From NCBI GenBank assembly GCA_031763025.1, contig JASSKH010000019.1, positions 9,836,250 through 9,900,249 of the forward strand: a stretch of 64,000 nt of DNA. The letters run 5' to 3'. The DNA is from Macrocystis pyrifera (taxonomy: Eukaryota; Sar; Phaeophyceae; Laminariales; Laminariaceae). The translations under genes were made by a program, and so were the position numbers. The notes under the pieces are model-generated. The model saw only the letters and a program-made list of their open reading frames with translations. It was not told the origin of the DNA and searched no databases. Below are positions 14,523-49,841 of this stretch, piece after piece. Position 1 is the first letter of the stretch, and each line of letters starts with the position of its first letter.

Positions 14523-15351
14523 GGGCAAATGCCAAAATCAGGTATATCTGATCCGTTGGAGCCAAAATTAGGTACATCCTAAAACCAAGTAAAAAACGCG
14601 CGCCACGAGCGGTGTAATGTCCATGACAATCCGAAAAAATAAGAATGCGCCTAAAGCAATAAGCGTGCCACATGGCCTCCAGAATCTGAGTTGTTTTGTT
14701 TCCTTCAGGGTGTAGGTACCACGGGCTCCACGTGGACCTGCAAAGAGTCACTATTAATATGCTTTGTTTGTTTCGCCACGGCGGGAGCGCCAAGAGTATT
14801 TACGGAACCGCCTGCTCGGCACGAAATTATCTTGCCGTACCAAACCTGGGACCACCTCGACGCGGGGTTGTGCAGACGAAACGCGAGTGTCCATGGTGCT
14901 GTAAAGACTGCTGTGAACATAAAAAACAACAGAGTACACACAACAACTAACTGAAGCACATCGCACACCCCAAAGGAGAAAAAGTGAAACCAGCGTACGC
15001 ATGTACCAGGTATATGCATTGTATATACGTGCTTTTACGTACGACGTACGAGTGCAGAGGTTATACGTCAATACAGAAGAATTTCAACCAAGGGAGGGCA
15101 GACGCCTACGGAGAGAAAACACAGCAGTGTACGTATGGCCTCTCTGATTGGTTCAAAGTTGGCCAAAATCAGTTGAAAGCTAGACAGAGTAGATAAAATC
15201 AGGTGTACCTTGGCATTTTCGTTCCAAAATCAGTTACAATGTCAGCTTGGCCAATAGCAGGGCTCCTGGTGTGTGTTTTGTACTTGATTTCAGTGTGCAA
15301 CTGTTTTTGGCACGAAAGTGGCCAGGTATACCTGATTTTGGCAAAAACCCC
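14523..15351 (-). mobile_element. TIR element B, complete copy (829 bp)
   Basis: The termini are inverted: AATGCCAAAATCAGGTATA at the left and TATACCTGATTTTGGCA at the right, with GGG/CCC just outside. A-rich 7-8 bp flanks within a LINE UTR look like an imperfect target duplication. The 48744-49639 copy is its reverse complement end to end, and 21091-22400 is a rearranged relative. No transposase ORF is present, so it is a non-autonomous DNA element. A 7-8 bp duplication would suit a hAT- or Mutator-type system. Confidence 0.7.
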
Positions 15352-15440
15352 AAAAAAACACAACTCTACAATACTTATAAACAGAGCGAGACTAAGAACC
15401 AAGGGAAGATAACAGGCAAACCTGGTACTACAGCATCCCG
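15352..15440 (-). mobile_element. LINE-A 3' UTR, continuation beyond element B
   Basis: TATAAACAGAGCGAGACTAA and GAACCAAGGGAAGATAACAG match the complement of the LINE-A UTR block seen at 17790-17815 and 42200-42235. Confidence 0.65.
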
Positions 15441-15639
15441 GTACCTGGTAAATATATGTTGTATTGTATATATCGTGGTATATCACAAGATATGATGTCA
15501 CGGCGGTTGTGTCCTTGGGTAGTTGTTTTAACAATCACCCTGACGTCTGCATGCAGTGAACTTTCTCGGAATTGATTGATATCTTAGGGCTGGTTGCTGC
15601 TGCTCAATCACTGCTGCCTTTTCCAATTTTTGTTGGAGT

Positions 15640-16110
15640 GTGTGTGTTTGTGTGTGTGTTCTTCACACTAAACCGTTCTTTCTACCCGTCGGCGTCCAGC
15701 AGAACCAGTGTGGGTGCCAATTCTTCGATCCTGGAAGAGATACAAGTTCTGTGGTCACAAAACTACACCACATAAATAAATACTACGTTGCCACAAATGC
15801 CATGCCATCATACAGCAGTGTGAGAGATCGGCGTGGAAAGAAATTACATTGGCCCCTTGAGTATGCGGCGACCGGCATCCGACACTAAAACATTTAGTTC
15901 CCGAATATTATATACACAGAAGAATTCATACTCCCGGGCGTACTCTCTCTATACATACGTATACGCGTGTGTGTGTGTTTCTACCCGTCGACATCCAGCA
16001 CAACAGTGTCCGTGCCGATTCTTCAATCCTAGCGAGATACAAGTTTTGTGATCTCAAAACTGCGCCGCAGAGATACCATTAATACTGCTGTACATTAGCA
16101 GTAAGCACAG
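15640..16110 (-). mobile_element. Two LINE-A tail units (minus)
   Basis: Tail units at 15640-15800 and 15969-16080, each with TTCTTCACA/TCTACCCGTCG, ACATCCAGCA, CCGTGCCGATTCTTC-like and hairpin blocks. A GT-rich run precedes each one, which on the LINE strand is the (AC)n tail. Confidence 0.7.
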
Positions 16111-16113
16111 GCT

Positions 16114-17373
16114 GTGTGTGTGCTATCACCGTTACTGTTCAACGTATTCTTCGCTGCTGCGTTACACGTCGTACAAGTACCCTTCAGCCTTGACGAAGCC
16201 ATCGTAAGGAATTTGGTCCAACTCGGTGATGCTGGAGTAGTCGGAATGGAGGAGCAGGAGCCGTTGGCGTGCGTGCGAAGGCTGTATGGGGCATGTTGTA
16301 CGCCGATGACGCAGGAATTGTCTCGAAGTCGGCTGAAGGGCTCGCGAAAATGATGACGGTCATCGTGACTGTCTTCGAAGCAGCAGGCCTCACGGTGTCG
16401 GAAAAGAAGACAGAGACGAGGCTTCTACAAACGCCAGACCAGAAAACCCTCGCACCACCGCTCGTCATCGAAGCAGCAGGCCAGAGGTATAAGCAGACGG
16501 ACCAGTTCTTATACCTAGGCGGCATTATCCACGAAAACGCTGACCTCTCGGTCGAAATTGACCGACGGATGGGTCCGTTTCATGCGAGCATGCCTCAAAC
16601 GGTTCGGCCCGGAGCTGTATGATAGAACGACCGCCCCCCTTAGCCTGAAAGTCCGAATGCCCAAGGCCGAGGTAATTGAGAGACCCTGCTGTACGGGTGT
16701 GTGTGTGACGTGGACCCTCAGAGCGGAACACTTTGCCAAGCTTCGAACGGCTCACCACCGAGTCCTGTTGCGAGCCATTGGCTTCCAGCGCCGACTTCGT
16801 ACTGACCATACCACCCTCTCGTACGCGAAGGCCCTCAAGATGACACGTTGCGAGAGTATCGAAACGACCATTCCCAAACGGCGACTCTTCTTCGCGGGGG
16901 GGGTGGCACGGCAAAGCACGGATCGATTACCCAGTCTGGTAAAGTTCGGGATGATGGCTGGTGGGGAGAACCCGAGACCTGGCGGACAGTTTAAGACTTG
17001 GCATAGATGCATAGTCGAAGATCTTAGGGAGTTCCGAGCCACCGAAGGGTCAACGGAACTTGCCCCCTTCGTGTTTGGAGTTGAGACCGCGCTGTGGTCC
17101 ATTGTTGCAAAAACGGCGGGGAAGTGGTACTGGGGAATCCTCGAAGCAGCCGAACGGTTCATGGTGAGGCACGAGGCTGAGGCTGAGCTGAGTAGGCAGC
17201 GCCGCGCATCCGCCGTGGGTGGTGCCCAAGGGAATGGGGGAGAGGGGGCAACAAGAAGAGTGACAGAAAACCCGACCATAGGACTGCGGAGAGGGGGGGG
17301 AACAGGAATAGAAGGGAAATTGCAGTGGACGAAAGTCGGAAGGAGATGGCAGACAGGGTACCAGGCAGACTAG
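16114..17373 (+). pseudogene. LINE-A reverse transcriptase, C-terminal half (frameshifted)
   Basis: Begins at RT motif B-like [16 protein letters not shown]. The catalytic motif [14 protein letters not shown], follows in the next frame at ~16290-16325, then [19 protein letters not shown] and [16 protein letters not shown] third frame (16558-17373) carries [34 protein letters not shown] and a basic, glycine-rich C-terminus ending YQAD. Two frameshifts prevent a continuous product. It matches the LINE-B ORF at 52987-54534 through most of its length but differs in the glycine-rich end. RT would act at chromosomal nicks in target-primed reverse transcription. Confidence 0.85.
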
Positions 17374-18054
17374 GAAGTACAACATGCTTATATTACTGGT
17401 GCAGCTGGTTCGAAAGTGATCTTCCTTTCTTTGTCTTCCTCTTGTTTTTTTATTGTTTTTTTTTTTGGTTCATTTTATTTTCTTCTTTTGGCGCTGACCC
17501 CATGTAATTTTCCTTTTATTTCTTTATCTTCCTTTCTCCGATTGATAAACCTTATTGAAGCAGTCGTCGTATGGCGTGGGTGGATGACGAGCCTGCTTTG
17601 CTTGTTTCGTACTGTCTGCCGCCTCCGTCCGTCCTGCGTTTGTCAACTATGCCCGGCCCCTCGGCGTCAGACAGGGTAGCAAGGTACCTGGGGGACTAGC
17701 AGGGAGACCCTGGCTGTGCTACTCGTACCATAAAGTGCTGCCGCTACCTGGAGGGTGCTTTGTGCTTTGGTTTGCCTGTTATTTTCCCTTGGTTCTTAGT
17801 CTTACTCTGTTGACGACGACTAGTGGTGTTTTTCTTCTTTTTCATTTTTTTTTCCAGCTCGTTCTTTTCAAGCATCTGCCAGATCCCCTGCGGGGGGGGG
17901 CACGATGGTTTTGTTTCTTAAGTTTGTCTTGTTTCTTTTCTTCTTTCGAATTGTCTTCTTTGTTTTCGTTTTTTTCTCTTTGTTTCGTTTCGTTTCTCTA
18001 CTTCATGGAATGTGTGTGTCGTGCCTGTCGTATGCAGTACGATGACATGGCATT

Positions 18055-18395
18055 TTTTATATTTATTTATTTATTTTTCATCATCACTTTTACTTTCCAG
18101 CCCACTCGAAGGAGGTTTTACCCTCGACGATCTTCTGGACAAGCCGTGGTCACAGGTGTCGTCCCTTCTCCCCCCCGGTACGTGCCTTCATTTTTATCGC
18201 GCATAGGGTTCAGCATTCCCACTACTCGTCGATTTTCATCGAATGTAGCTAACTCACGCTCTCGCGCTTTCCGCTTATCAATTTATTTTGTGCAAGAAAA
18301 AGCCCCTACGAGCATGCGCTCGGTGAGATTTGAACCCACGAAATTGATCTTGATAGGCACGCGGACCACCTACCAAGCCACCGTGGACGCCGGCA
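18055..18395 (-). mobile_element. tRNA-derived SINE, full length, 5-bp TSD
   Basis: Minus-strand SINE in the LINE-A 3' UTR. GCATT at 18050-18054 and 18396-18400 is the target duplication. The empty-site sequence, ACATGGCATTGCATTGCATA, is visible in LINE copies at 600-640 and 2530-2550. Its B box is slightly changed. Confidence 0.85.
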
Positions 18396-18653
18396 GCATT
18401 GCATACGTGGCAACGTAGTATCTCTGTTTCGTAGCTTTGTGACCACACACAGCACTTGGATTGAAGAATCGGCACGGACACTGGTTGTGCTGGATGTCGA
18501 CGGGTAGAAAGGACGGATTATTGTGAAGAAACAACAACAACAACAACAACAGCAGTAGTAGACAATGCGGTGCCATGTTCATCATAGCATAGCGGATATG
18601 ACAGACACGACATAGAACAAAGAAAAAGAAACAAAACAAATCGAAAGAGCGTA

Positions 18654-18994
18654 GCGTCGCCGGTGGCTTGGTAGGCGGTCCGCGTGCCTGTCAAGATCAA
18701 TTTCGTGGGTTCAAGTCTCACCGAGTGCATGCTCATAGGGACTTTTTCTTGCATAAAAAATTGATTAGCGGAAAGCGCGAGAGCGTGAGTTAGCTACATT
18801 CGATGAAAATCGACGAGCAGTGGGAATGCTGAACCCTATGCGCGACAAAAAATTAAGGCACGTACCGGGGGGGAGAAGGGACGACACCTGTGACCACGGC
18901 TTGTCCAGAAGATCGTCGAGGGTAAAACCTCCTACGAGTGGGCTGGAAAGTAAAAGTGATGATGAGCAAAAAAGAAAAAAAAGAAAAAAAAAAA
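18654..18994 (+). mobile_element. tRNA-derived SINE, full length
   Basis: tRNA-like head with A box TGGCTTGGTAGGCGG and B-box GGGTTCAAGTCTC, conserved body, and impure A-rich tail with G interruptions. It lies just after the LINE-A copy ending at ~18545. Confidence 0.8.
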
Positions 18995-19378
18995 GTGTCG
19001 AAACAATACGATACCTGTACCGATAGCATCTTTTTGTCGTCTACGCTATAGTTACCATAATAATACCTGTAGTCCATGCAGAACATTTTTTCCAGAAATT
19101 CGACATCCATCCACATGTTGAATTGTTTTGCGGTGGCCACTTGTGTTCGGAACACATGCAATATATTGCCGGAAAGCCCTGTTTAAGACGGATCGAACCA
19201 TCGTGTCCGATTTTTTGTTTTCGTCGCTGCGTCGGAGAAATTCGTTTTCCCGGCAAAACTTTGGTAAGATTTTGGAGGCCGACACAGCAGTTTTCGATTT
19301 TTTTTATTTCGACACCGGATTTGAACGTATCTCGTCCAGGGGCAAATTGCGTTGGATGGAGATTTTGGTTTTATCCTT

Positions 19379-19475
19379 TTGTTCTCCCCGAATCCGGAAA
19401 ATAAATAATTTTGTTCTCCCCGAATCCGGAAAATAAATAATTTTGTTCTCCCCGAATCCGGAAAATAAATAATCA
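19379..19475. repeat. 32-bp tandem repeat, three units
   Basis: Three near-perfect copies of a 32-bp unit containing TTCTCCCCGAATCCGG and AAAATAAATAA. It is likely replication slippage. No function is evident. Confidence 0.85.
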
Positions 19476-19681
19476 GGTACCAGGCATATCAGGTATCAAG
19501 CTTTGCTGGTGAAGTTACTCCTGCTCTTGCAGTGTGCGGGGATAGACGTAAGTGCCTGAGTACCTTCTACCTGGTACCAGTATAACATACTATACCTGGT
19601 ACATGGTACGAGGTACCACCATACTACTATACGTATTATATACAAAGTGCTGTGTTTGAGACTGTGGTGTATGTGTATAGC

Positions 19682-20024
19682 CGGCGTCCCCGGTGGCTTG
19701 GTAGGTGGTCCGCGAGCCTGTCAAGATCAATTTCGTGAGTTCGAGTCTCACCGAGTGCATGCTCATAGGGACTTTTTCTTGCATAAAAAATTGATAAGCG
19801 GAAAGCGCGAAAGCGTGAGTTGGCTACATTCGATGAAAATCGACGAGCAGTGGGAATGCTGAACCCTATGCGCGATAAAAAATAAAGGCACGTACCGGGG
19901 GGGAGAAGGGACGACACCTGTGACCACGGCTTGTCCAGAAGATCGTCGAGGGTAAAACCTCCTACGAGTGGGCTGGAAAGTAAAAGTGATGATTAATAAA
20001 AAAAAAAAAAAAAAAAAAAAAAAA
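19682..20024 (+). mobile_element. tRNA-derived SINE, full length, long A tail
   Basis: Complete head and body, with a pure A tail of nearly 30 bases (about 19997-20024). ATGTGT occurs on both flanks and may be the target duplication. The homogeneous tail suggests a recent insertion. Confidence 0.85.
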
Positions 20025-21090
20025 TGTGTGGGCGCAAGAAGTCCTCCTACGCACCAGTTCCCCAAACTAGTATAGTAACGATTACTACTGTACTCGTACG
20101 TCATCACCCGGCCTCGTTGACCTTTTCATTTTGAAGCGAGATACAAGAAAAACGCCACCTTTTTTTCCTGGTTCCAGCTGTGGAGATGTTAGCGCATAAA
20201 AAACTGGCACCATGGATGTCGAAAAAGTCCTCGGATTCGGATGAATTGGACCTAGACCCTCGATCACATTTTGTTTTTTCGAAAAAAACTCTGTGGGCCG
20301 AGTGAAAGCCTTTTCATGAATCTTAATCTTCATACATAGTGTATATGACGTAAAGTATATATTGTCGTGAATGGACAGATGCATCATTGTGGGTATACAT
20401 AAAATACTTTTTTTCACCTACGTCTCCTGTATACATACATGTATATATGTATAATGTGTCTTCTCAACAAAGCAAAAATTGGGCATCATCTCTATTTTAT
20501 TTTCGATTCGGATCATTTCGTTTTTTTTTGCAACATTTCGGGGTAATTTCGGGGTAATTTTTCCCATTTTTTTCCAAAAGTAGCCATTGCTCATGTTTTT
20601 TTTTTTTATGACCTGTTTTGGATTCTTCTCGGCCGCGCGATTCTGGAGCACTTTGCTTCACGTGTGTGTCAATTCTCAAAAATAACGGAGGAAAAAGTGT
20701 ACCCCCTTTGGAAACATTGTTCTGCCTGGACCATACAATTTCCAAACTGGCGAGTTCACACAAGCTCAGGCAGAGCGCTGGCGAGAGCCGGGGCGTATGA
20801 GTCCATCCTGAGATATCCACGGGTTGACTGCTGATGATGTGATGGCGTGCGGTTTCTTACCCAAACTGTAACTTTTATCCAACATGCAGACCTGAGAACA
20901 TCGCCGACTGCTGCTACTGCTGTGTGAGCATGTATCACACAGCACATTATGTTGCTCGGTTTCAGCGTTTACTCGTTGTGAGCTATATTTAAGCCGCATG
21001 CTCCGTCCAGATACATATTCACAGGTTGAATTTCCTGGTGGGTCATTATATTATTACCATGCATGGTGGTATTATTACTATTATTATTAT
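20025..21090. other. No feature recognised
   Basis: No shared repeat or coding domain seen. Short minus-strand frames at 20418-20999 are basic and low complexity without recognisable motifs. Confidence 0.3.
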
Positions 21091-22400
21091 GCGCAGATGT
21101 CAAAATCAGGTATACCTGATCCGTTTGAGGTAAAATCAGGTAAATTTTAAGGCCAAGTAAAAAACGCGCGACACGAGTGGTGTTGTGTCCAAAAAAATCC
21201 GGTAAAGAAAGAACGCGCCTAAATAAAGCAGCATTAAGCGTGCCACATGGCCTCCAAAATCTGATTTGCTTTATTTTCTTCAGGGTGTAGGTACCACGGG
21301 CTCCACTTTTGGACTTGCAGAGAGTCACTATTAATACGTATGCTTCGTTTGCTTCGCGACGGCGGACGCGCCAATAGTATTTACTCTGTCTGGTGCCCCC
21401 CCCCCCCGTTGACAGCTTTAAAGCTTCTACGTAGACCGTCCTCGCGGAACCGCCTGCTCCGCACGAATTATCTTGCTGCGGTACTATTAAACCTGAGACC
21501 ACCTCGACGCGGGCTGGTGCAGACAAAATACGTGTGACGTATAAACTCTGTACATGTACTCGTGCGTCGTACGTAAAAATACGTGTTATACATGCATACA
21601 CTGGTTTCACTTTTTCTAAGCTTGGTCTTCTTTCGTGTGTGCGATGTGTTTCAGTCATTTACAGTTGTTGTGATGTGTATTCTCGTAGGGGCTTTTTCTT
21701 GCATAAAAGAAATTGATTAGCAGAAAGCGCGAGAGCGTGAGTTAGCTACATTCGATGAAAATCGACGAGCAGTGGGAATGCTGAACCCTGTGCGCGATAA
21801 AAATAAAGGCACGTACCGGGGGGGAGAAGGGAAGACACCTGTGACCACGGCTTGTCCAGAAGGTCGTCGAGGGCAAAACCTCTTACGAATTAGGCTGGAA
21901 AGTGAAAGTGATGAGTTAAAAAAAAAAAAAAAAAAAAAAAAAAACTTGTTCTCTATAGTCACAGCAGTCTATACAGCACCATGGTCACACGACATTTCGT
22001 CGTCGAGGTGGTCTCAGGTTTAGTACGGCAGCAAGATAATTTCGTGCAGAGCAGGCGGTACCGCGAGGACGGTCTAGAAGCTTATTTAAAGCTGTCAACG
22101 GGGGGGGGGGGCACAGTAAATACTATTGGCGCTCCCGCCGTCGCGAAACAAACGAAGCATACGTACGTATTAATAGTGACTCTTTGCAGGTCCAAGTGGA
22201 GCCCGTGATACCTGAAGAAAACAAAACAAATCAGATTTTGGAGGCCGTGTAGCACCATGAATGCTCTATTTAGGCGCATTCATTTTTTACCGGATTTTCA
22301 TGGACATAACACCGCTCGTGTCCCGCGTTTTATACTTGGTTTTAGAATTACCTGATCTAGGCTCAAACGGATCACGTATACCTGATTTTGGCATTTTCCC
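21091..22400. mobile_element. TIR element B with two inverted long arms, holding a SINE fragment
   Basis: Left arm 21091-~21537 and right arm ~21955-22400 are inverted copies of the same ~440-bp piece of element B: GTCAAAATCAGGTATACCTG at the left, TACCTGATTTTGGCA at the right. The middle (21540-21680) runs in the right-arm orientation and matches 49020-49150. A truncated SINE interrupts it. Compared with the 829-896 bp copies, one end has been replaced by an inverted duplicate of the other. Confidence 0.65.
21682..21944 (+). mobile_element. SINE, 5'-truncated
   Basis: Starts within the body (GGGGCTTTTTCTTGCATAAA), lacks the tRNA head, and ends in a long pure A run. It lies inside TIR element B. 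5' truncation fits target-primed reverse transcription. Confidence 0.8.
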
Positions 22401-22769
22401 TATTTTTTATTATTAGTACTATTATTGTTTTTATCATGCTTGCCAGGTCATTATTAATTTATTTCCTGATCCGACAATGTGCAGAGCTTGTTCTCGTCAT
22501 ATGGTAACCATCCATCGACATAAAAAACGGTTATTATCATACATATTATTAATAACTTTACACCTGGAACGTGCATAACTGCTGTAACTAATGTTAGTAG
22601 GGCACTCCACGACGATCCGAGGTGACAAGGACAGAGACATGACGAGTGAGGAATGGAGTATCTCATTCGAACGTGCGGCAAACCGCAGCATCGATAGAAC
22701 AGCCTCTTCGGGCAGCAGTTTCGTTGCGCAAAATTCTTCCGATGTACGTGAGGGGCATTCGATTATTGC

Positions 22770-23100
22770 TCTGTCGTCTCCTATTTATTTATTTGGGATT
22801 ATTCTTCTTTTCTTTTTCGGTTTGGTTTCTTCGTTGCTTCTCTTTCTTTATGGTCATTGTATTGTGGTTGCTGGCGTATATATATGTATGCTGTATCGGC
22901 CGCACCTAGTGCGAAGACATGGTATTGCGTAGGCTAATATTAATAATGCATTACGATGTGTTATCTTTGTGTCGTAGTCTGTGACCACAGAGCTCGTATC
23001 TTTCTAGCGTGAAGAATCAGCACGGGCACTGGGTTTGCTGGATGTCGACGAGTAGAAGAACGTCTAAGAACGTTTTAATGTGAAGGACACACACATTACA
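22770..23100 (+). mobile_element. LINE-B 3' end
   Basis: Matches the complement of the LINE-B 3' UTR at 52395-52700: TTTATTTATTTGGGATT, TTTCGGTTTGG, CGGCCGCACCTAGTGCGAAG, then the tail unit with CTGTGTCGTAGTCTGTGACC and GTCGACGAGTAGAAG, ending ACACACAC. A small internal duplication (AACGTCTAAGAACG) is private to this copy. Confidence 0.75.
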
Positions 23101-23211
23101 TTAAATATGATAATAATAGGAGAACCATGGAGTAACACACAGATAGGTGTAGAGTCACGCTCGTCAGGGAGACAACAACACGAATTATTGAGAAACTTTC
23201 GTCAGGGAATG

Positions 23212-24030: not shown

Positions 24031-24117
24031 GTACAGGTACTCGGATCTGCTTGAACTACTAGCTGACTTTAGTTGGTGTCCATTGGCCGACTAAAGTCAT
24101 AGACGAGCGAAGCGAGC

Positions 24118-37425: not shown

Positions 37426-38348
37426 TGCTGATGTCTGGCCGGAGGTCGTTCTCCCGTGACGTCACTTGGGAACACCCGAGGAAACCGTTTGTGGGGTTAC
37501 TGCGTTCGGAGGAGGAGAGCTCCCCGCCGCCGCCGTCGCTGTCGCCACCGCCACCGGGGGCGCCGGAGCCTCTGAGGGGCCCCGGCGTATGGCCCGAGCC
37601 ACCGTCCCCATCTCCACTGCTGCCGCCACAGCCGCCGTCATCACCGCCGCCACCGCCGCCGCCGCCGTCGCCGTCGCCGCCGCCATCGCCGTCACCGTCG
37701 CCGTCGCTGCCGCCGTCATCGTCACCACCGCCGCTACAGCCGCCGTCACCGCCGTCGCCGTCGCCACCGCCGCCGCCGCCGCCGTTATCATCGCCGTCGC
37801 CGCCGCAGCAGTCACCGCAGCCACAGCTTTTGCAGCGTGCTGCCCGGGCACTGGGTTCTTATATCCCGGACCCGGAGGATGGCGATGTGCTGAGGGGGCG
37901 GACAAGGGGGGAGACTGCACGACACCAGGAGGGTGGTGGCGGTGTGCAGGGTGATCGGGCCAGGGGGGAAGCTGGGCGACACCCGGAAGGTGGAGATGTG
38001 CTGAGGGGGCGGACAAGAGGGGAGACTGCGCGGAACCGCGAGGCTATGGGGCGTGGGCTGCTGTCGTTGATGGCAGCGCGGGAAGGTATAGGCCATGTAC
38101 TTTTCCACCAAGCCCCACCGCGCGAGAACCCTCCCCTTCCCACACGCCCGGCGAGCGAGCTTTCGACGGCGAACTCGTATGCTGAAGCGTGTGCGGACGA
38201 GTATTCGGCCATCTGGAGACAGGCGATGGACAAGGAGTACCATGGGCTGGCGGACGCGGGGACGTTTGGAGCGACGTAGCAACCAGAGGGGCTCAACGTC
38301 ATCTCGGCGAAGTGGGTGTTCGCCTAGAAGTCCAAGGAGCATGGTGAC

Positions 38349-39692
38349 GTGGTGCGGGTGAAAGCAAGGCTGGTGGCACGAGGTTTCAAGCAACGTGAGG
38401 GTATTGATTTCTTTCAGACTTTTGCTCCGACGCCTGCAGCGTCTTGTTTCCGTTTGTTGGGTGCTATTGCGTGCGAGTTGGGTTTGGATTTGTGTCATTT
38501 TGATGCTGAGCAGGCGTTCGTGCAGTCGAGTTTGGATGAGGATGTATTCATGCGACTACCCCCCGGGTGCGGCGAAATGTCTGGTAAGGTAGTCAGGTGT
38601 AATCGCAGTCTCTACGGCTTGAAGCAAGCGTCGAGGTCGTGGCACAACCACCTTCTCACTCACATGAAGAGTCTAGGATTTGATCAGAGCCCCGCTGATG
38701 CGTGTGTCATGAGGTTGGTAGAGTCGGCCTCTGCCTCCATTGTAACTGTGGTTCATGTGGATGATATTTTTGCTGTAGGACTCAAGGCTAGATGCGATCA
38801 GTTCTGTGAAGACTTGAACAACCTTGTGCCGATCAACAATCTGGGCGAGTTACGGTGGTGTGCTGGTTGTTGTTTTTCGAGGGATTGGGATGCTGGTACT
38901 TTGACGATTTCGCAGCAGGCGCTCGCTGAAAATACCGCGGCGAGGTTTGGTGTTGGTTCTGGGAGGAATAACCCGCTTTCGACTGGTGTGAAGCTCGAGG
39001 AGTTTGACGAGAATGAACCCGTGGGTGATTGGCCTTTCCGCGAGTTAGTGGGGTGCTTGATGTGGCTTGCGAACCAAACACGACCGGATATTGCGAACGC
39101 GGTGAGGGCGATAGCGAGGTACACGAATAGGCCGAGGGAAGTACACTGGAAGACAGCAGTCGGTATTTTAGAGTATGTATTTTCTACGAGTGATTTCGGC
39201 ATTACGTTCCAGAAGGGTAGCGGGCTTCAGCTGGTAGCGTTTGCAGATGCAGACTATGCCAACAAAGCCACTGACAGGAGGTCAGTTTCCGGTGGGGCTA
39301 TCATGTGTGCTGGGGCGTATGTGTGCTGGTTTTCTAGGACGCAGAAATGCGTCACACTCTCAACCACTGAGGCCGAATATGTAGCACTGGCAGACACTAT
39401 CAAGGAGGCAATGTTCATGCGCTATGTATGGAGGGGTTTTTTTTTCCGGGGTTTGGGGAGAAGTGCATTTTTTGAGGATAACGAGGGGGCAAGGCACCTG
39501 GCACAAAATCCAGTGTGCACGTCGAATTCGAAGCACATCGACCTACGACACCACTTTTTGCGCGAGCTTATTTTTAAGGGGGAGTTTGTTATTACCCATG
39601 TAGAGTCGGAGAAACAGCATGCAGACTTCTTGACAAAGCCGCTCAACAACACGGTGTTTCGTTACCACCGGGATTTTCTGATGAATATTTGA
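38349..39692 (+). pseudogene. Copia pol part: reverse transcriptase and RNase H
   Basis: The RT region is recognisable from KARLVARGFKQREGIDF, LYGLKQASRSWH and the VHVDDIF box. The RNase H region is recognisable from FADADYAN, TEAEYVALAD and KHIDLRHHFLRE. The order and spacing are those of Copia, not Gypsy. In an active element it would copy the element's RNA inside a virus-like particle. It is treated here as part of a broken element, not a host gene. Confidence 0.9.
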
Positions 39693-41150: not shown

Positions 41151-41155
41151 GTACT

Positions 41156-41640
41156 CATTATCATGCATGGCCGTAGTCGTATGACCATAGACCCTCGCAT
41201 CCCTAAAATACTGGGGCGGAGCGCGTCGGGTTTTCACCGACCAGGAAGACATTGCTTGCACCAAGCGCGAAGCGCCGTGAGGTGTCCGGCGAGTCGCATG
41301 AAGAGTGAGCTGCATCCTACTAAGAACCGCTTTAGAGGCGGATTTTCTTGCATATGGATGACAGCATCAATGAATTGATTTAATTTCTGGTGAGGCCACT
41401 TCCAGAGACAGCAATGGGTTCACTATGTAACTGCCCCGTGGGTGCCTCACCATATACAAACTGCGTGATACGATCATCCCCCTTGTGTAGAGTAAAGGTT
41501 CTTTTAGCACGAAAATGATCTAACTTGACCGCCAGCCGTGGGGACCGCAAAAAAAAAGGTACTACCCTGGCTGTCTAGCTCACGCAGTGAGAGGCGTGTT
41601 TTTACGGCGTCGTCGCCAACCGACGCCAACCCAACCTATA
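41156..41640. other. No feature recognised
   Basis: Anonymous spacer between two LINE-A fragments. Confidence 0.3.
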
Positions 41641-41644
41641 TATA

Positions 41645-42622
41645 CCAGGTATATAATATAGCGGGGGGGGGGGGGGTAACAAGAGGAGGAAGGAGTGGAA
41701 GGAACCCAACCAAGGAAATGGGGGGAAGGGGGGCAACAGGAGGGGTAGAAGGGAAACCGCGCTGGACGGATTTCGTAAGTAGGAAGGAGATGGCAGACAC
41801 GGTAACAAGGCACCAGGCCGACTAGGAAGTAGAAGATGCCTATGCTACTCGTGCCGCCAACGGCTGCAGCTGGTTCGAACGTGGTCTTCCTTTGTCTCCT
41901 TTTTTCCTTTTATTTTGCTCTTGATCCTCCGTGATTTTCGTTTTACATATTTCTCGTTCTTTCTTCTGTTAATGAGTCTTGCTAAGACAGGAGTCGTGTG
42001 GCGTGGGTGGGTGATGAACATGCTTTCTTTGCTTGTTCCGTATTGTCTTATGCCGAGGGGCGGGGCATAGTTGACGAACGCAGGACGGAGACGGCAGACA
42101 GGCTAGCAAGGTCCAAAGCGGACTAGTAGGGAGACCCTGGCTGTGCTACTCGTACCACGATGTGGCCACCTGGAGGGTGCTTCGTGCTTGGGTTTGTCCG
42201 TTATTTTCCGATGGTTCTTAGTCTCACTCTGTTTATAAGTGTTTTTAAGTAGAGAGTGAGTGGTGTTTTTTGTTTCTTTAGCTCGCTTTTTGCAAGTGTC
42301 TGCCACATCTCCTGAGGGGGGGCACGACAGTTGGTTTTTTTTTTTTTTTTCTCTTCTCTTCCCATTTGTTTTCTTTTTTTCCTTGCTTTTGTTTTATTTG
42401 TTTTCTTTCGTTCTCTCTTTCATAGAATATGTATGTCGTGCCTGTAATACCCACTATGATGACATGGGATTGATTGTGTTGTCTACTGCTGTGCTTGTTA
42501 CAGCATACGCAACAATGTCGTATCTATGTGGCGCAGTTTTGTGGCCACAGAACTTGTATCTCTCGGGTTGAAGAATCCGCACGGACACTGGTTGTGCTGG
42601 ATGTCGACGGGTAGAAAAACAC
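41645..42622 (+). mobile_element. LINE-A: last ~60 codons, 3' UTR and tail
   Basis: Begins with a G run and the glycine-rich C-terminus ([20 protein letters not shown]), ending with TAG after QAD (~41825). It continues with the standard UTR blocks and the tail unit to an AC-rich end at 42622. The complete 3' UTR makes this a good reference for the family. Confidence 0.8.
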
Positions 42623-42654
42623 AAACACACAAGTATAAGGACCCTGTAGGGAGA

Positions 42655-43150
42655 AAGTGTCGCCCCCCCCCGTACCAGTACGAAGGGGTATGTGTATTCT
42701 GTCCTTTCTGCCCGTCGACATCATCAACCAGTGTCCGTGCCGATTCTTCAATCCTAGAGAGATAAAAGTTATGCGGTCACAAAACTACGCCACAGAGATA
42801 CTACATTATTTTCATTGTTGCTACGTATGAAGTAAGCGCGGTAGACAATGCAGTGGCATGTTCATCCATCATACTGGATATGAGAGGCACGACATACATA
42901 TTCTATCACAGAGAGAAAACGGAAGAAAACAAAGAAAAACAGAAACAAAAACAAAAGAAAAATATATAACAAATCGAAAGAGAGAAAGGGGATACAACAC
43001 TCCAGAACAAGCGACAAGCTATACTGCTGTAAAATAAACAATACCGCTATTAATACTACGAGTACGTACTTATAGACGGAGTAAAACTACTGCGTGTACG
43101 AGTTAGAACCAAGGGAATTTTCAAAAGCAAGCAAACGAAGCGCATAAAAA
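42655..43150 (-). mobile_element. LINE-A 3' UTR and tail (minus)
   Basis: Tail unit at 42690-42810, then CATACTGGATATGAGAGG, the A-rich block and AGAACCAAGGGAATTTTC. It forms a tail-to-tail pair with the plus copy ending at 42622. It carries several extra short TA-bounded insertions around 43020-43110. Confidence 0.7.
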
Positions 43151-43790
43151 GATTTTATTGGCACACATCTACGGCGGTCCACCAGACATCTTTGAGTCTA
43201 TCTTCAAGTACGTGGCTAATCTGTGCGCAGGTAAGTATCACCTATCGCCTGTCTCTGCACTCTGTACGAGTAGCTGAAGCAAACAGATGCCAACATGTGG
43301 CTTGTGACTCACTCGTATATCATGTGTACATATGATATACGACGACGTATCATGTGTACGTATGTGGTATTGCTCTTATTCTAATACGTAGCCGGTGGCC
43401 TATGGTGGTGTAGTCGTGCGCACGTGCTTACGTACCCTCGAAAGCTTGTATTATATTAATATTAATAGAAGTTGATTTCGGATTTCGGATTCCCACGGCG
43501 GTGGCGAGAAATTCTTCATTTTCAACAAATACAAACAGCAAAAGGAATCAACAGCTGAGAGCGCGTACGTATCGTGAATAGGCGCAACTCGGCGCGGAAA
43601 TTCTCGCGATAAAAACGAAGGCACGAACCGCCGCGTGCTGGCTACTGGGTGCTGGATGCTCGGGAGGGGGAAGGAGAGCCCACTACTCTGTGTGACCCGA
43701 GATCTGAGCTACAAAGGGAGGGAGAAAGGAGGGTGAAGACAATAAATGAGAGAAAAAAAAAAGAAAAAAAAAAATACCTGGTACGCACTG
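43151..43790. other. No gene; short perfect hairpin
   Basis: CGTATATCAT at 43311-43320 pairs with ATGATATACG at 43327-43342, making a 10-bp stem. No coding or shared repeat signal otherwise. Confidence 0.35.
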
Positions 43791-43794
43791 CTGT

Positions 43795-44213
43795 GTGTGT
43801 GTGTGTTCTTCACATTAAACCGTTCTTCTACTCGTCGACATCCAGCAAGCCCAGTGTCCGTGCTGATTCTTCACCCTAGGAAGATACGAGCTCTGTGGTC
43901 ACAGACTACGACACAGAGATAACACACCGTAATGCATTAATAGCCTACGCAATACCATGCCTTCGCACTAGGTGCGGCCGACACAACATACGTACATACG
44001 CCAGCAACCAAGACACACCATGAAGAAAGAGGAGCAACGAAGCAACCAAACCGAAAAAGAACAAGAAAAAGAAAAAGAAAAGGAGAAGAATCCCAAATAA
44101 ATAAATAAAATGAGAAGCCAAAGCTCAGACACACATACATACTTACCCCGAGCATGAGCCAAAAGGGACGTGCAAGGGGAAATATACGAGAAGGAAAAAG
44201 GGGACTATGCACT
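43795..44213 (-). mobile_element. LINE-B 3' UTR and tail (minus)
   Basis: (GT)n, then the tail unit with CTACTCGTCGACATCCAGCA, CGCACTAGGTGCGGCCG and the A-rich block, up to GGGGACTATGCA. Nearly identical to 50335-50750 and 52395-52810. 5' truncated inside the UTR. Confidence 0.8.
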
Positions 44214-44226
44214 GCTATACATCCAC

Positions 44227-44563
44227 GGCGTCCCCGGTGGCTTGGTAGGTGGTCCGCGAGCCTATCAAGATCAATTTCGTGGGTTCAAGTCCCACCGAGT
44301 ACATGCTCATAGGGACTTTTTCTTGCATAAAAAAATTGATAAGCGGAAAGCGCGAAAGCGTGAGTTGGCTACATTCGATGAAAATCGACGAGAAGTGGGA
44401 ATGCTGAACCCTATGCGCGATAAAAAATAAAGGCACGTACCGGGGGGGAGAAGGGACGACACCTGTGACCACGGCTTGTCCAGAAGATCGTCGAGGGTAA
44501 AACCTCCTACGAGTGTGAGCTGGAAAGTAAAAGTGATGATGAAAAAAAAAAAAAAAAAAAAAA
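44227..44563 (+). mobile_element. tRNA-derived SINE, full length
   Basis: Complete head with a B box GGGTTCAAGTCCCACC whose T-stem pairs perfectly, conserved body with one 3-bp insertion (GAGTGTGAGC), and ~22 A tail. Lies 14 bp after a LINE-B fragment. Confidence 0.85.
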
Positions 44564-46018
44564 CGCTCGTATTACTATAATAGTGCTATATTATTTATTT
44601 ATTTATTTTTATTTATTTATTTTTTTTTATTATTTTTTTTTTATTATTTTTTAAATAGTGCTATATTATTTTATAAAAAAAATTTGAAATACGTCAGCTG
44701 TGAGTTCGACTGATTAAATAGTTGATACTCAACTTGCAAGCTGCGTAATACGCCTCGTCTATGTTCCATTTTTACCAAATTTTACAAGTATTGTGATTAT
44801 TATAATACGTACCTCCCTTTTATCGTGAAGTGAATGTTGTCGTTGAGAAGATTCGCTGGGCTCAGAAGTATTCTTGCGAAGACGCCGACACTCTGGACAA
44901 CTGCCCGGGACAGCAAAATTTCAACACAAAACGCAGTATTCTAGGTATAATACGATTTGCAGTGGGGAACGCGCCTCGTGCCAGTCCACAAATACCACTA
45001 TTGTTCTTGCTCGTAGTTCCGTTTAAGAGCGATTTGGACGTTTCTCGGGGTAGAAGGGGCGAACGAACCATCTCTTTCTTCTTGTCTGCTTGTGTCCGCA
45101 GTCCGCGGAAGCATTATTTATCTCTGCTCGAAGAGCGCAAAAGCTTTTTGAGGCGTCAAAAAAAATCGGACGGAACCTGATTATTATCCTTGCCATATTC
45201 GACTTGAAAGCGAAGTGAATTCCAGGCCCTATACAACGGCATATGGCTTGCATGAGTCACGATTGTATTGCATCGAGCTGGGGACGTAAGTCAGATATCG
45301 GGGGGGAGCAACACCAACATTAAAACAAACTCTGCGTCCGCTCACACGCCAGCAAAACATCCAGAATCCGTGCCGATTCGAAATTATTTTTACTTCCTCC
45401 GTGGAAGCAGGCTCCTCTCTAAAACGATATTACTGCAACGTGAATGATCAGAAAGAAAACAAAACCATCTAACTGGTGGAATTCGTCCGTGCTGCACCCA
45501 TGGCGGCAACTGCGTCTGTGCATGGCATGTAAATATGAAGGTTGGGGAGCTTGCAGTGTGTTGCGCTTGAGCTCGCATCGCTCACCGGCTGCGCGGGGCA
45601 TGTTGCAGACCGTTGTTGAGAGAGCGATTGCCCGGGTTCGTTCGTATATTTTCGGGGTATCCCCACCGTTGTCCGTCACATATATACGAACGGACGAGAA
45701 CAAGCCAAAACGCTCTTTTCATTTCTATCTCTGATCTGTACTATTTCGGTGTCAAACCGAAAAGAACGCCCCTGACTCCGTATGAAGCTCTTAAGTCGGG
45801 TACCCCACTGCTGTATATGTATATCTACGTACGTAATCGTGTTCGTATACCAGGTTTCACGAAAGCCACACACATCCACACATACCAGTACCAGATATAG
45901 CAGTGCGCCGAGTACACACTGCACTGGAAGCTGCGCAACCCGTAAGGTGAGACCATTGGCTAGAAAACGACACCGACGACGAGGAAGCGCCGTGCATGGC
46001 AACCTGCAGCCGTGTTGC
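44564..46018. other. AT-rich spacer, no gene recognised
   Basis: TTTATTTATTTATTT-type simple sequence at 44595-44660, with GTGCTATATTATTT repeated on each side (44583 and 44658). Frames at 44830-45180 and 45419-46155 have no recognisable domain. Confidence 0.35.
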
Positions 46019-46425
46019 TGGAACGATGTCGTTGCCCCTTGCTTTTGTGTTTTCGGTCCCAGAGACTGATGCCGCCCCAAAATGCGTCTGTCTCGTAGTA
46101 TTACTATATTCCAGGTATACAGATACTCGTGAAATGCTCGGTCGGTCTTCCGCACAACTAATTCCTGGAACCCTCGTTATCCGTAGTGAAAGCTCATCCT
46201 GTCCACTGCTTGAAGAGCTGCCAGATCGATGTCGTTGTCACGTCCCTTGTTAGGGTCCCCGAGCCTGATGCCGCTGCAACATGCATCTATCTGCGTAAAC
46301 AACAATTTGTATAAACATTAATTCGCGAAATTCTCGGTCTTCCGCGCTATGATACCAAATCCCGGCCTCCTGTCATCCGTGACAAACGCTCATCGTGTGC
46401 ACTCCTCGAATCGTCGAACAAGCAA
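46019..46425. repeat. Diverged tandem duplication, ~200-bp unit
   Basis: Units 46019-46222 and 46223-46425 share CGATGTCGTTG, CTGATGCCGC, GAAAT.CTCGGT and CTTCCGC. AAGCTCATC.TGT matches AACGCTCATCGTGT. The units are strongly diverged. Function unknown. Confidence 0.5.
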
Positions 46426-46802
46426 CGGTGAATTTAACGCGCCAAATCTTGAACGGCAGCAAGCAGCATCTCGCCCGTGATTGCTCGTCCAGTGCTCTCT
46501 ATAGGACACCGCGTAGGCCTATAGCCGTACTGTTACAGTAATATTAATGGTGGTTTTAAGAGCAGGCTCCGTCGCAGCCGTGGCGCACTTGCTCCGGATG
46601 CAGGGCAACACGGCAGAACAGAAAGCGACACCACACTCACTCCCCCCCTCCATCGTGTCAGATTAAATTTATACAAACCAATGGCTTGATAATTGTGGAG
46701 TGGTTCTTTCTTTTGTTTTCTTGGTTTCATGCATGTTCTTTCTTCTCTTTCACTCTTCATCTCTTTCATTAATAATTGTATAATACAGCAGTCGTATATG
46801 TA

Positions 46803-47116
46803 CCGGCGTCCCCGGTGGCTTGGTAGGTGGTCCGCGTGCCTGTCAAGATCAATTTCGTGGGTTCAAGTCCCACCGAGTGCACATGCTCATAGGGACTTTT
46901 TCTTGCATAAAAAATTGATAAGCGGAAAGCGCGAAAGCGTGAGTTGGCTACATTCGATGAAAATCGACGAGCAGTGGGAATGCTGAACCCTATGCGCGAC
47001 AAAAATAAAAGGCACGTACCGGGGGGGAGAAGGGACGACACCTGTGACCACGGCTTGTCCAGAAGATCGTCGAGGGTAAAACCTCCTACGAGTGGGCTGG
47101 GAAGTAAAAGTGATGG

Positions 47117-47149
<33 letters not shown>
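46803..47149 (+). mobile_element. SINE, first of a head-to-tail pair
   Basis: Full-length SINE ending in ~30 A. Shares with the next copy a private variant (GGGAAGTAAAAGTGATGGAT) not seen in other copies, and both are preceded by TATATG. Confidence 0.85.
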
Positions 47150-47153
<4 letters not shown>

Positions 47154-47161
47154 TGATGAGC

Positions 47162-47473
47162 CGGCGTCCCCGGTGGCTTGGTAGGTGGTCCGCGTGCTTG
47201 TCAAGATCAATTTCGTGGGTTCAAGTCCCACCGAGTACATGCTCATAGGGACTTTTTCTTGCATAAAAAAATTGATAAGCGGAAAGCGCGAAAGCGTGAG
47301 TTGGCTACATTCGATGAAAATCGACGAGCAGTGGGAATGCTGAACCCTATGCGCAACAAAAAATAAAGGCACGTACCGGGGGGGAGAAGGGACGACACCT
47401 GTGACCACGGCTTGTCCAGAAGATCGTCGAGGGTAAAACCTCCTACGAGTGGGCTGGGAAGTAAAAGTGATGG

Positions 47474-47506
<33 letters not shown>
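47162..47506 (+). mobile_element. SINE, second of the pair, with (TA)n tail
   Basis: Full length, but the A tail is replaced by GATAAATATATATATA, a (TA)n run to 47506. Twelve bases separate it from the first copy. The pair looks like a tandem duplication rather than two independent insertions. Confidence 0.85.
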
Positions 47507-47507
<1 letters not shown>

Positions 47508-47579
47508 CTGTAGAGCGGTTGCTGTTATTTAATAGTAGCTCTTATCATTGGCATAGCATTGGTCATCTATTGTCCTGTG

Positions 47580-48300
47580 CATGTCAACGTGGTGTCAACC
47601 GGTGATCGTGGCAACGTAGTGGCGTGGCTTCGTGACCACAGATTCTGAACTTGTATCTCTTCTACTGCTGCTGTAGGATTGAAGAATCGGTACGGACACC
47701 GGTTGCTGTGCTGGATGTCGACGGGTAGAAAGAACGGTTTAATGCGAAGAACAGACACAGCGATGATCTCCTCACGAAGGACTGCTGCTGTGCATTGCGA
47801 TGTAATAACTCCGTCTCATAATATATGAGCACGGAACTTGCATCTACTGCTGTATCTCTCTCAACATACAAGAAGAATTAGCACGGGCAACAGGTGTATA
47901 TACAGTAGTACACAGAGTACTGCATTTTTCTGGGTTCTTGTCTTCTTTTGTTTTCTTTCGTTTTCTCTCATAGATTGTGTACGTGGCTGTCATATCCAGT
48001 ACTTGTAACTATTGTGATGTCATGACATGGCATTGCATTGTGAACGGCTGCTGCTGTGATTATGCATACGTAACAATGTAGTATTAATATCTCTGTGGCG
48101 AAGTTTTGTAACCACAGAACGAACTGTACGAATCTCCCGAGGGATTGAAGAATCGGCACGGCTGACGGACAGACTGGTTGGGAATGTTCTGGATGTCGAC
48201 GGTAAAAAGAACGGTTTAATGTGAAGAACACACAGACATCGACGGGTATAAGGAACGGTTTGTTTTCCATGTGAAGAACACGCAACCTTCTCAGGTTTGC
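47580..48300 (+). mobile_element. Three LINE-A tail fragments in a row
   Basis: Tail units at ~47600-47757, a decayed one at ~47820-47890, and 47935-48240 with a duplicated end (GACATCGACGGGTATAAGG at 48237). Each contains short insertions bounded by TA relative to the consensus at 2566-2690. Confidence 0.65.
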
Positions 48301-48620
48301 TCTTCTTCAGCTGTCAGGCGGAAGTAAAACGCGCTTTCGCTTCATTCAGCTCGTTTTTTAGCAGCAACAGCAGCTGCCGCAGTACTCTTTTTAGAGTCTT
48401 TTTACGTACCACTCTGACCCAACATATAAGGTACGTTTGGATTTAATAATTGTATGCTACCGGTCCTTATATTTCGGGTCAGAGTGGTATCACTTTCGTA
48501 CTTTAGACATCAATTATGTATCTCTTATTTTGGCTCAGGCGACCCGGTTATTGTGACGTCAACGTTAAGCTCGGGCGATTATGTACCTGGCAGGTAGGAT
48601 TTAGAGTGGCGGCCTTGATT
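48301..48620. other. No feature recognised
   Basis: Contains ACCACTCTGACCC (48410) and its complement GGGTCAGAGTGGT (48476) as the arms of a loose inverted repeat about 80 bp across. No more is seen. Confidence 0.35.
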
Positions 48621-49841
48621 TTCCATCACTTTTACTTCCCAGCCCACTCGTAGGAGGTTTTACCCTCGACGATCTTCTGGACAAGCCGTGGTGACAGGTG
48701 GCGTCCCTTCTCCCCCCCGGTACGCCCGCGCGTGCCTTCATTTGGTTTTTTGCCCAAATCAGGTATACCTGGCCACTTTCGTGCCAAAAACAGTTACATA
48801 CTGAAATCAAGTATAAAACACACACCAGGAGCCCTGCTATTGGCCAAGCTGACATTGTTACTGATTTTGGCACGAAAAAGGCCAAGGTACACCTGATTTT
48901 TTCTACTCTGTCTAGATTTCAACTGATTTTGGCTAACTTTGAACCAATCAGAGAGGCCATACGTACACTGTGTTTTATCTCCGGATGCGTCTGCCCTCCC
49001 TCGGTTGAAATTCTTCTGTGCAGTGTAGTGACGTATACACTCTGTACTCGTACGTCGTACGTAAAAGCACGTATATACATGCATACATGCGTACGCTGGT
49101 TTCACTTTTTCTCTTTTCTTTGAAGTGTGCCATGTGCTTCAGTTACGAGTAGTTGTCGTGTGTACGTACTGATCTGCTGTTTTCTATGTTCACAGCAGTC
49201 TTTACAGCACCATGGACACTCGGCGTTTTTTGTCTGCACCACCCCGCATCGAGGTGATCTCAGGTTTGGTACGGCAAGATAGTTTCGTGCCGAGCAGGCG
49301 GTTCCGCGAGGACGGTCTGGAAACTTTAAAGCTGTCAACGGGGGGGGGCGCCAGAGTAAATACTGTTCGCGCTCCCATGGCGAAACAAACGAAGCATATT
49401 AAGATTAATAGTGACTCTCTGCACGTCCAAGTGGAGTCTGTGGTACCTACACCCTGAAGAACACAAGACAATTCAGATTTTAGAGGCCATGTGGCACGCT
49501 TAATGCTTTAGGCGTATTCTTTTTTTTCCGGATTGTCATGGACATCACACCGCTCGTGGCGCGCGTTTTTTACTTGGTTTTAGTATGTAATTGATTTTGG
49601 CTCAAACGGATCAGGTATACCTGATTTTGGCATTTTCCCTTTATTTTTTGTCGCGCATAGGGTTCAGCATTCCCACTGCTCGTCGATTTCCATCGAATGT
49701 AGCCAACTCACGCTTTCGCGCTTTCCGCTTATCAATTTTTTATGCAAGAAAAAGTCCCTATGAGCATGCACTCGGTGGGACTTGAACCCACGTAATTGAT
49801 CTTGACAGGTACGCGGACCACCTACCAAGCCACCGGGGACG
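48621..49841 (-). mobile_element. SINE split by TIR element B
   Basis: Minus-strand SINE: 3' part 48621-48743, 5' part with tRNA head 49647-49841. The halves join cleanly across element B at the TGCCTT(C/T)ATTTTTTGTCGC position seen in other copies. Confidence 0.85.
48744..49639 (+). mobile_element. TIR element B, complete copy (896 bp) inside a SINE
   Basis: Left end GGTTTTTTGCCCAAATCAGG, right end CTGATTTTGGCATTTTCCC. Reverse complement of the 14523-15351 copy throughout. Flanks TTCATTT / TTTATTT form a probable 7-bp target duplication with one mismatch. No transposase. It is 67 bp longer than the 14.5-kb copy, partly through short TA-bounded insertions. Confidence 0.75.

What the first reader, a model, noticed from the sequence alone, without database searches (positions are those of the whole stretch)
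14523..49639. Tiny TA-core-TA insertions litter repeat copies, like excision scars of TA-targeting transposons
Comparing copies of the same repeat inside this window shows small extra pieces bounded by TA. Element B: CAGTTA[CGAGTA]GTTG at 49146-49151 versus CAGTTAGTTG in the 14.9-kb copy; CATGTA[CCAGGTATA]TGCAT at 15006-15014 versus CATGTATGCAT at 49.08 kb; GCATA(CGTA)nTTAATAG with n = 0 (14.75 kb), 1 (21.33 kb) and 2 (22.16 kb). LINE-A tails: GTAGTA[TTAATA]TCTC at 48081-48090; CTA[CTGCTGCTGTA]GGATT at ~47662-47675; a CTGCTG version at ~47843. The same words (TATTAATA, TACCAGGTA, TACGAGTA, TACAGCAGTA) recur dozens of times in anonymous DNA. Tc1/mariner excision leaves TA, a few terminal bases, TA. 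If these are footprints, they record a very large amount of cut-and-paste activity by short elements. Slippage or another repair process is the alternative, and the repeated CTG/CAG cores are less well explained by footprints.
Basis: partly seen in the sequence, partly recalled or inferred. Interest (0 to 1): 0.78.

Follow-up and report, generated by a model that had tools for sequence, protein, structure and literature searches.

The report
Transposon excision scars litter kelp genome
The tiny TA-bounded extra pieces are real and recur across this giant-kelp genome, and are best read as scars left where short jumping elements were cut out of TA sites, so the DNA keeps a dense fossil record of that jumping.

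Summary
Observation confirmed. Assembly statistics match giant kelp, Macrocystis pyrifera. In 159 kb of repeat-masked sample, TACCAGGTA occurs at 56 sites (Markov-3 expectation 1.7), TACAGCAGTA at 39 (1.4), TATTAATA at 53 (5.8); TA is the boundary with the clearest excess. Three genome-wide "trap" searches at one TA in a MITE, a SINE and a LINE tail gave 374, 116 and 115 matches, reversed controls 0. Their leading cores differ: CC(A/T)GG, CTCG/CGAG, TTAA. Copies sharing a core are generally no closer to each other than to copies without it, so events recur. Two intact donor candidates exist: a 79-bp hairpin TA[CCACTCTG...CAGAGTGG]TA (window 48407-48489; 20 of 21 copies read have TA on both sides), whose ends predict CCAGG, and a ~105-bp MITE TA[TTACGGGGG...CCCCCGTAA]TA, predicting TTAA. 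Best explanation: footprints of Tc1/mariner- or Stowaway-like cut-and-paste elements with a 3-nt stagger, repaired by end joining. Unexplained: CAGCAG cores, donors for CGA/TGA/CAG cores, and the transposase. Slippage is not the main source.

The parts
15006..15014 (+). CCAGGTATA: footprint CCAGGTA plus a further TA, in element B copy 14512-15353
49146..49151 (+). CGAGTA footprint (core CGAG) in element B copy 48741-49651
48084..48089 (+). TTAATA footprint (core TTAA) in a LINE tail
   Evidence: read against the other LINE tails
47665..47675 (+). CTGCTGCTGTA insertion at the LINE-tail TA used as a trap; the same TA holds TTAA, CAGCAG, CAG in other copies
   Evidence: this site is row C199:9883909-9883937
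47845..47854 (-). TACAGCAGTA (reads TACTGCTGTA on +)
48407..48489 (.). TA-flanked 79-bp hairpin element, ends CCACTCTGACCC / GGGTCAGAGTGG; donor candidate for CCAGG/CCTGG/CCATGG cores
56610..56718 (.). TTAC-MITE, TA[TTACGGGGGTCC...GGACCCCCGTAA]TA; donor candidate for TTAA cores; abutted by TACCTGGTA
5684..5792 (.). second TTAC-MITE copy, right end decayed
14512..15353 (+). Element B copy (MITE-like, TIR TGCCAAAATCAGGTATACCTGAT), host of small insertions
48741..49651 (-). Element B copy used for comparison
13707..13726 (+). two TACAGCAGTA words in tandem in anonymous DNA

Best explanation
The insertions are excision footprints. Short non-autonomous inverted-repeat elements insert at TA and duplicate it (shown for the 79-bp family; for the TTAC-MITE shown for most ends). 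A transposase acting in trans cuts them out with a staggered cut about 3 nt inside each end, leaving the first three bases S as 3' overhangs next to TA (inferred, from Sleeping Beauty and mariner). End joining pairs the two S overhangs with whatever overlap fits and fills in (inferred): CCA with 1-nt overlap gives CC(A/T)GG and with none CCATGG; TTA with 2-nt overlap gives TTAA; CGA would give CGAG (overlap 2) or CG(A/T)CG (overlap 1). The scars outlive the elements, some are hit again (nested words), and for six cores together they stand about 1.2 per kb above expectation in the unmasked sample.
For: TA is the boundary with the clearest excess, mainly for cores with complementary first and last base (length 4, 2.20 vs 1.27; length 5, 1.85 vs 1.07). 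79-bp element: the 39 scored matches other than itself start at query 1-12 and end at 92-95, the TAs being at 10-11 and 91-92; the window copy and the 20 best-scoring others are all 79 bp, 20 of 21 have TA on both sides, flanks differ. One of them (L082) lies at the TA of the TTAC-MITE arm (its arm reads GTTGATA, one base off the pattern) where the trap finds 30,949 exact empty sites and 374 with 2-32-nt inserts. Of the first 100 inserts listed, 40 are CC(A/T)GG, 4 CCGG, 3 CCATGG, 3 CCAG, 3 CCCTGG, 2 CCCGG. Of the combinations of that element's end bases tabulated in anonymous DNA, CCAGG/CCTGG (56 vs 1.7) and CCGG (28 vs 5.2) stand out strongly, CG (216 vs 83.9) and CCAG (21 vs 9.6) mildly. 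Independence: the 20 fetched CC(A/T)GG sites have different outer flanks; nearest neighbour in own group for 1 of 12 CTCG SINEs; 17 TTAA LINE tails are no closer to each other (0.82) than to other tails (0.822). Nested case TATTATTAATAATA. Sleeping Beauty/mariner 3-nt overhangs and overhang-derived footprints: PMC7827188, passages; Stowaway footprints of TA plus 1-4 terminal bases: PMC1925063, passages.
Against: No Tc1 (PF13358) match in the genome; PF01359 gave none either, but no control genome rang, so that is uninformative. Pogo-type DDE_1 matches exist (39), but around the one followed over 8 kb the best TA-flanked inverted pairs were only pieces of separate TTAC-MITEs at the two ends of the stretch. 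The 79-bp family's first-look count is 719 (a lower bound) against 0.35 TACCAGGTA per kb of sample, so CCA-type scars would exceed intact 79-bp copies by about two orders of magnitude. CCATGG, the plain filled-in product, is 0 in anonymous DNA (expected 0.5) though present at the trap. CAGCAG does not fit the overhang rule. Donors for CGA, TGA and CAG were not found; one CGA candidate was rejected because homology runs past the TA. CGAG SINEs: nearest neighbour in own group 2 of 4, so some of those may be shared by descent. The intended trap at a non-TA dinucleotide did not complete, so TA specificity rests; AT..AT also shows a mild excess.
Confidence: 0.87

Rival explanations
1. Replication slippage or tandem duplication of microsatellite-like words makes the extra pieces.
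For: Some small insertions in the same copies are exact tandem duplications (ATC, CAG, TGAT, GAGGGAG), and the traps also catch GA, GG, AA and GTAAA classes. CTG/CAG units are slippage-prone.
Against: The main inserts are not copies of the neighbouring bases: CCAGG in TWAATAGGACC, TTAA in TTCTAGGATTG, CTCG in CATAGGGAC; the same cores recur at unrelated sites, and two of them follow the ends of real elements.
Confidence: 0.05
2. The words are preferred target sites, not scars: TA elements simply favour TATTAATA-like palindromes.
For: The TTAC-MITE is flanked so that TAT-TA-ATA could be its target; 4 of 20 fetched 79-bp copies lie inside TTAC-MITEs (read by eye).
Against: The trap and alignment comparisons show the words arising at a plain TA in repeat copies that otherwise lack them.
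Confidence: 0.04
3. Another end-joining process at TA breaks (for example abortive integration by the same transposase, or another TA-cutting nuclease) adds the cores without an element ever having sat there.
For: CCA-type scars far outnumber the 79-bp copies counted; CAGCAG has no donor; no Tc1 transposase was detected.
Against: Cores equal the terminal bases of real TA elements, and the same trap site holds an intact element in another copy (L082).
Confidence: 0.06

Closest known systems
Sleeping Beauty / mariner excision footprints (Tc1/mariner superfamily)
   Same: TA target and duplication; staggered cut 3 nt inside the ends; footprint made of terminal bases between two TAs (PMC7827188, passages). 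The central-mismatch form TAC(A/T)GTA is recalled, not from a call.
   Different: Here several core types of 2-6 nt occur at genome scale, the most enriched being 5 nt (CC(A/T)GG); no Tc1/mariner transposase found.
Stowaway MITEs of grasses
   Same: Short TA elements; footprints of TA plus 1-4 bases of the ends; repeated gain and loss at one site (PMC1925063, passages; PMC4561436, passages).
   Different: End sequences differ (CCACTCTG, TTACGGGG); the grass study describes five distinct footprints in one intron, here 374 inserts of 2-32 nt were counted at one trap site.
pogo-like elements (DDE_1)
   Same: TA target (recalled); DDE_1 frames exist in this genome.
   Different: No link found between those frames and the 79-bp or TTAC ends.

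Membership tests
Tc1/mariner-type (Stowaway-like) MITE: the 79-bp element | TA target-site duplication | tested here: met
   20 of 21 copies read TA..TA, one CA..TA, flanks differ; empty TA in TTAC-MITE context for L082
Tc1/mariner-type (Stowaway-like) MITE: the 79-bp element | Terminal inverted repeats, short, non-coding, many copies | tested here: met
   79 bp, inverted ends CCACTCTG; 719 first-look candidates, 40 scored, all 40 covering the element
Tc1/mariner-type (Stowaway-like) MITE: the 79-bp element | Footprint of terminal bases between TAs | tested here: inconclusive
   The predicted cores CC(A/T)GG, CCATGG, CCGG are found at one site, but that this element left them is inferred; excision was not observed
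Tc1/mariner-type (Stowaway-like) MITE: the 79-bp element | Shares ends with an autonomous element encoding a Tc1/mariner DD(E/D) transposase | tested here: inconclusive
   PF13358 0 matches, PF01359 0 but control silent, PF03184 39 matches, 8 loci read, no matching ends
TA-type MITE: the TTAC element | TA duplication and inverted repeats | tested here: met
   27 of 33 ends preceded by TA, upstream diverse; ~105 bp, 18 of 18 terminal bases inverted in four copies; 11 of 12 right ends followed by TA
PIF/Harbinger (Tourist) MITE, considered for the TTAC element | 3-bp target duplication | tested here: not met
   Left flank-end reads TATTAC, right GTAATA; the shared duplication that fits is TA
PIF/Harbinger (Tourist) MITE, considered for the TTAC element | Precise excision | tested here: inconclusive
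   TTAATA scars at LINE-tail TAs argue against it, if this element left them

The most novel reading that the evidence does not exclude
In this kelp, cut-and-paste excision at TA is a leading source of short insertions genome-wide: several element families, each with its own scar, have left of the order of a hundred thousand scars for each of the commonest cores (extrapolated from the sample), the CCA type outnumbering counted intact 79-bp copies by about two orders of magnitude, through a transposase that the Tc1 Pfam model does not see. The (CAG)n scars would come from a further element or a distinct repair route.
Probability: 0.4. Interest if true: 0.78.

Novelty: new member of a known kind. 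Interest (0 to 1): 0.62.

Why it matters
Excision footprints are usually studied one site at a time (as in the papers seen). Here the scars are dense enough (0.35 TACCAGGTA per kb of unmasked sample, 95% 0.27-0.47) to be counted and assigned to element families from one assembly. That gives a readable history of cut-and-paste activity in a brown alga, a natural assay of how kelp cells join transposon-made breaks, and a warning that word enrichments and short insertions in kelp genomes can have a mobile-element origin. If scars exceed surviving copies by two orders of magnitude, copy number badly understates DNA transposon activity.

Tried and rejected
Considered and rejected. (1) L056 2889-3117, a TA..TA hairpin with CGATAGAGG ends, as the CGA donor: it is a real family (4296 first-look candidates) but homology in most of the 40 scored matches runs past the TAs (query 10-253), so its ends are elsewhere. 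(2) Pogo-like frames as source of the 79-bp or TTAC ends: no CCACTCTG or TTACGGGG in L061-L068; in the 8-kb stretch L089 the only TA-flanked pairs among the 25 best listed are pieces of TTAC-MITEs at the two ends of the stretch, which by their orientation I read as two separate copies. (3) A gap of 70-100 nt in the TTAC trap to count intact elements: 326 matches, but the listed ones come from the MITE's own or neighbouring copies; I saw no 79-bp element in the 100 listed. (4) Pfam PF13358: 0 matches; PF01359: 0 with a silent control. (5) TA[CGTA] in SINEs as independent scars: rejected; the four copies examined are at least 99.1% identical to each other against 97% to others, so the 47 CG rows were not counted as events (43 of the 47 were not examined themselves). 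(6) In the LINE trap, 29 of the 100 listed rows were set aside as LINE variants or unrelated left anchors before tallying. (8) Rfam: no match in the window. (9) Literature: searches listed no genome-scale footprint study of a kelp or brown alga, but listings were capped (12 of 79, 10 of 238, 10 of 14). Other searches: assembly; Sleeping Beauty.
Full report
WHAT THE WINDOW IS. The window lies at C199:9836250-9900249 of a 537,376,219-bp assembly in 223 contigs; the largest contig met here is 26.5 Mb. A published giant-kelp assembly has 537 Mb, 223 contigs and a largest contig of 26 Mb (PMC10498591, passages). I take it as Macrocystis pyrifera; this rests on assembly statistics, not on a marker gene.

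OBSERVATION. Aligning 33 element-B copies, 46 SINEs and 28 LINE tails shows further cases of TA to TA-core-TA: cores TCA, TTGA, CTCG, CCTGG and CGAA in element B and CCGG in a LINE tail, besides tandem duplications and ill-defined insertions. Of 26 distinct insertions of 5-9 nt, 9 have a TA direct repeat, 5 are tandem, 10 have a repeat of 0-1 nt, 2 have another repeat.

EXCESS IN ANONYMOUS DNA. I masked the known repeats and duplicate copies in the window plus 58 loci (273,119 bp), leaving 159,033 bp. Asking for every dinucleotide which words NN-X-NN exceed the product of their halves (z above 4, period 1-3 words dropped), TA gives 17 words with a summed excess of 408, led by TATTAATA, TACCGGTA, TACCAGGTA, TACAGCAGTA and TACGAGTA. 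AA and TT give 11 each (244, A- or T-rich words), CC and GG 7 each (113), CG and GC 5 each (45 and 61), AC, AG, CT and GT 1 each, among them shifted readings of the TA words, and AT, CA, GA, TC, TG none. With a Markov-2 expectation, TA-X-TA is in excess mainly when the first and last base of X are complementary (lengths 3-6: 1.86, 2.20, 1.85, 1.66, against 1.07-1.27); at length 7 the two classes are alike (1.41, 1.39), and AT shows a milder excess (1.16-1.43 for complementary cores). The sample is biased towards the surroundings of SINE and element-B copies. Densities per kb with locus bootstrap: CCAGG 0.352 (0.272-0.474), TTAA 0.333, CAGCAG 0.245, CGAG 0.189, TGAA 0.145, CCGG 0.088.

DONORS. 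Scanning for TA-flanked inverted repeats found two families with sharp TA boundaries. (a) A 79-bp hairpin at 48407-48489. A genome search gave 719 first-look candidates; the 40 that were scored (one is the window's) all cover the element. The 20 best-scoring others plus the window's are all 79 bp; 20 of 21 have TA on both sides and one has CA and TA; by eye 4 of the 20 sit inside TTAC-MITE copies. (b) A MITE of about 105 bp with ends TTACGGGGG(T/A)CC; 27 of 33 such ends are preceded by TA, and a 20-nt arm motif occurs 30,949 times exactly.

TRAPS. One TA in three abundant repeats was used as a natural trap, with patterns allowing 2-32 nt between two copies of the TA; reversed-pattern controls gave 0 each time. 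TTAC-MITE arm: 374 matches, against 30,949 exact empty arms, about 1.2%. The first 100 listed hold CCTGG 25, CCAGG 15, CCGG 4, CCATGG 3, CCAG 3, CCCTGG 3, CCCGG 2, several single variants, CTCG 2, CAG/CTG 2 and slippage-like classes such as AA 6 and GTAAA 3. SINE: 116 matches; of 100 listed, CG 47 (read as an inherited subfamily), CTCG 12, GA 10, GG 8, CGAG 4, CGACG 3, CGTCG 2, TCG 2, TTAA 1 and ten single others. LINE tail: 115 matches; of 100 listed, 29 set aside; of the other 71, TTAA 17, TTA/TAA 6, CAGCAG 3, CAG/CTG 3, TCAA/TTGA 3, and nested or longer forms; 39 of 46 cores of 3-7 nt have complementary ends. Only the first 100 of each set are printed by the tool, in contig order.

INDEPENDENCE. 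Twenty fetched CC(A/T)GG sites have different outer flanks. SINEs with CTCG are no closer to each other (0.876) than to copies without it (0.918), nearest neighbour in own group 1 of 12; CGAG 2 of 4 (0.938 within, 0.939 to others); the CGACG/CGTCG group 1 of 4. Seventeen LINE tails with TTAA: 0.82 within, 0.822 to others; three with CAGCAG: 0.743 within, 0.791 to others. So the same core has arisen repeatedly at the same TA, with the possible exception of some CGAG copies.

MECHANISM. Shown: repeated insertion of specific untemplated cores at TA; intact TA elements whose end bases give two of the cores; empty, scarred and occupied states at one homologous TA (L082). Inferred: excision, the 3-nt stagger and overhang pairing. 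The rule that S, the first three bases, pairs with itself by overlap o and leaves 6-o bases accounts for CC(A/T)GG (CCA, o=1), CCATGG (o=0) and TTAA (TTA, o=2), and would account for CGAG and CG(A/T)CG (CGA), TGA and TGAA (TGA), CAG (CAG). It is not strongly testable on short cores, since any 3- or 4-nt core with complementary ends can be written this way; the sharper test is the 79-bp element, where of the tabulated end combinations CCAGG and CCGG are strongly enriched, CG and CCAG mildly, and CCATGG is 0 against 0.5 expected. CAGCAG does not fit. That Sleeping Beauty and mariner cut 3 nt inside and leave overhang-derived footprints is in PMC7827188 (passages).

KNOWN OR NEW. Footprints of this kind are known from Tc1/mariner elements and Stowaway MITEs (PMC7827188, PMC1925063, PMC4561436; passages). 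What I did not find in print, in five searches of an open-access library with capped listings, is a genome-scale account of such scars in a kelp or brown alga, or the excess of scars over intact copies. Whether the two element families are already in a repeat library was not tested. The transposase is not identified: PF13358 gave no match, PF01359 was uninformative, and the pogo-like frames (PF03184, 39 matches, 8 loci read) carry no matching ends. I file the 79-bp element as Tc1/mariner/Stowaway-like by behaviour; membership by transposase is open.

Noticed in passing
window 56610-56718, 5684-5792; genome-wide: TTAC-MITE is very abundant: 30,949 exact copies of a 20-nt arm motif, often nested or in neighbouring copies.
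   Followed up: partly
L076, L082, L084, L086: 4 of 20 fetched 79-bp elements are inserted inside TTAC-MITE copies, apparently far above the share of the genome those copies fill, which suggests a target preference (by eye).
   Followed up: partly
L048, L049, L052, L059: SINE copies at least 99.1% identical carry TA[CGTA] at the trap site, apparently a scar that was then copied by retrotransposition; L048 and L049 also share flanks.
   Followed up: partly
L056 2880-3123: A family of about 240 bp with inverted CTACGATAGAGG near its ends (4296 first-look candidates), target duplication not determined.
   Followed up: partly
L062-L068 and other PF03184 places on small contigs: Pogo-like DDE_1 frames, many on small contigs, seven of the eight read lying in long stretches about 98-99% alike, like segmental or contig-end duplicates.
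   Followed up: partly
window 14512-15353, 48741-49651: Element B: about 870 bp with inverted ends containing GCCAAAATCAGGTATACCTGAT, 2,702 first-look candidates, boundary and target duplication not settled; L012's copy has TACCAGGTA close to both ends.
   Followed up: partly
window 38328-39692 and 52987-54540: Open frames that look like a Copia-type reverse transcriptase/RNase H end and a LINE reverse transcriptase (read by eye).
   Followed up: no
window 46803-47478: Two SINE copies in direct tandem, period 357, 97% matches.
   Followed up: no
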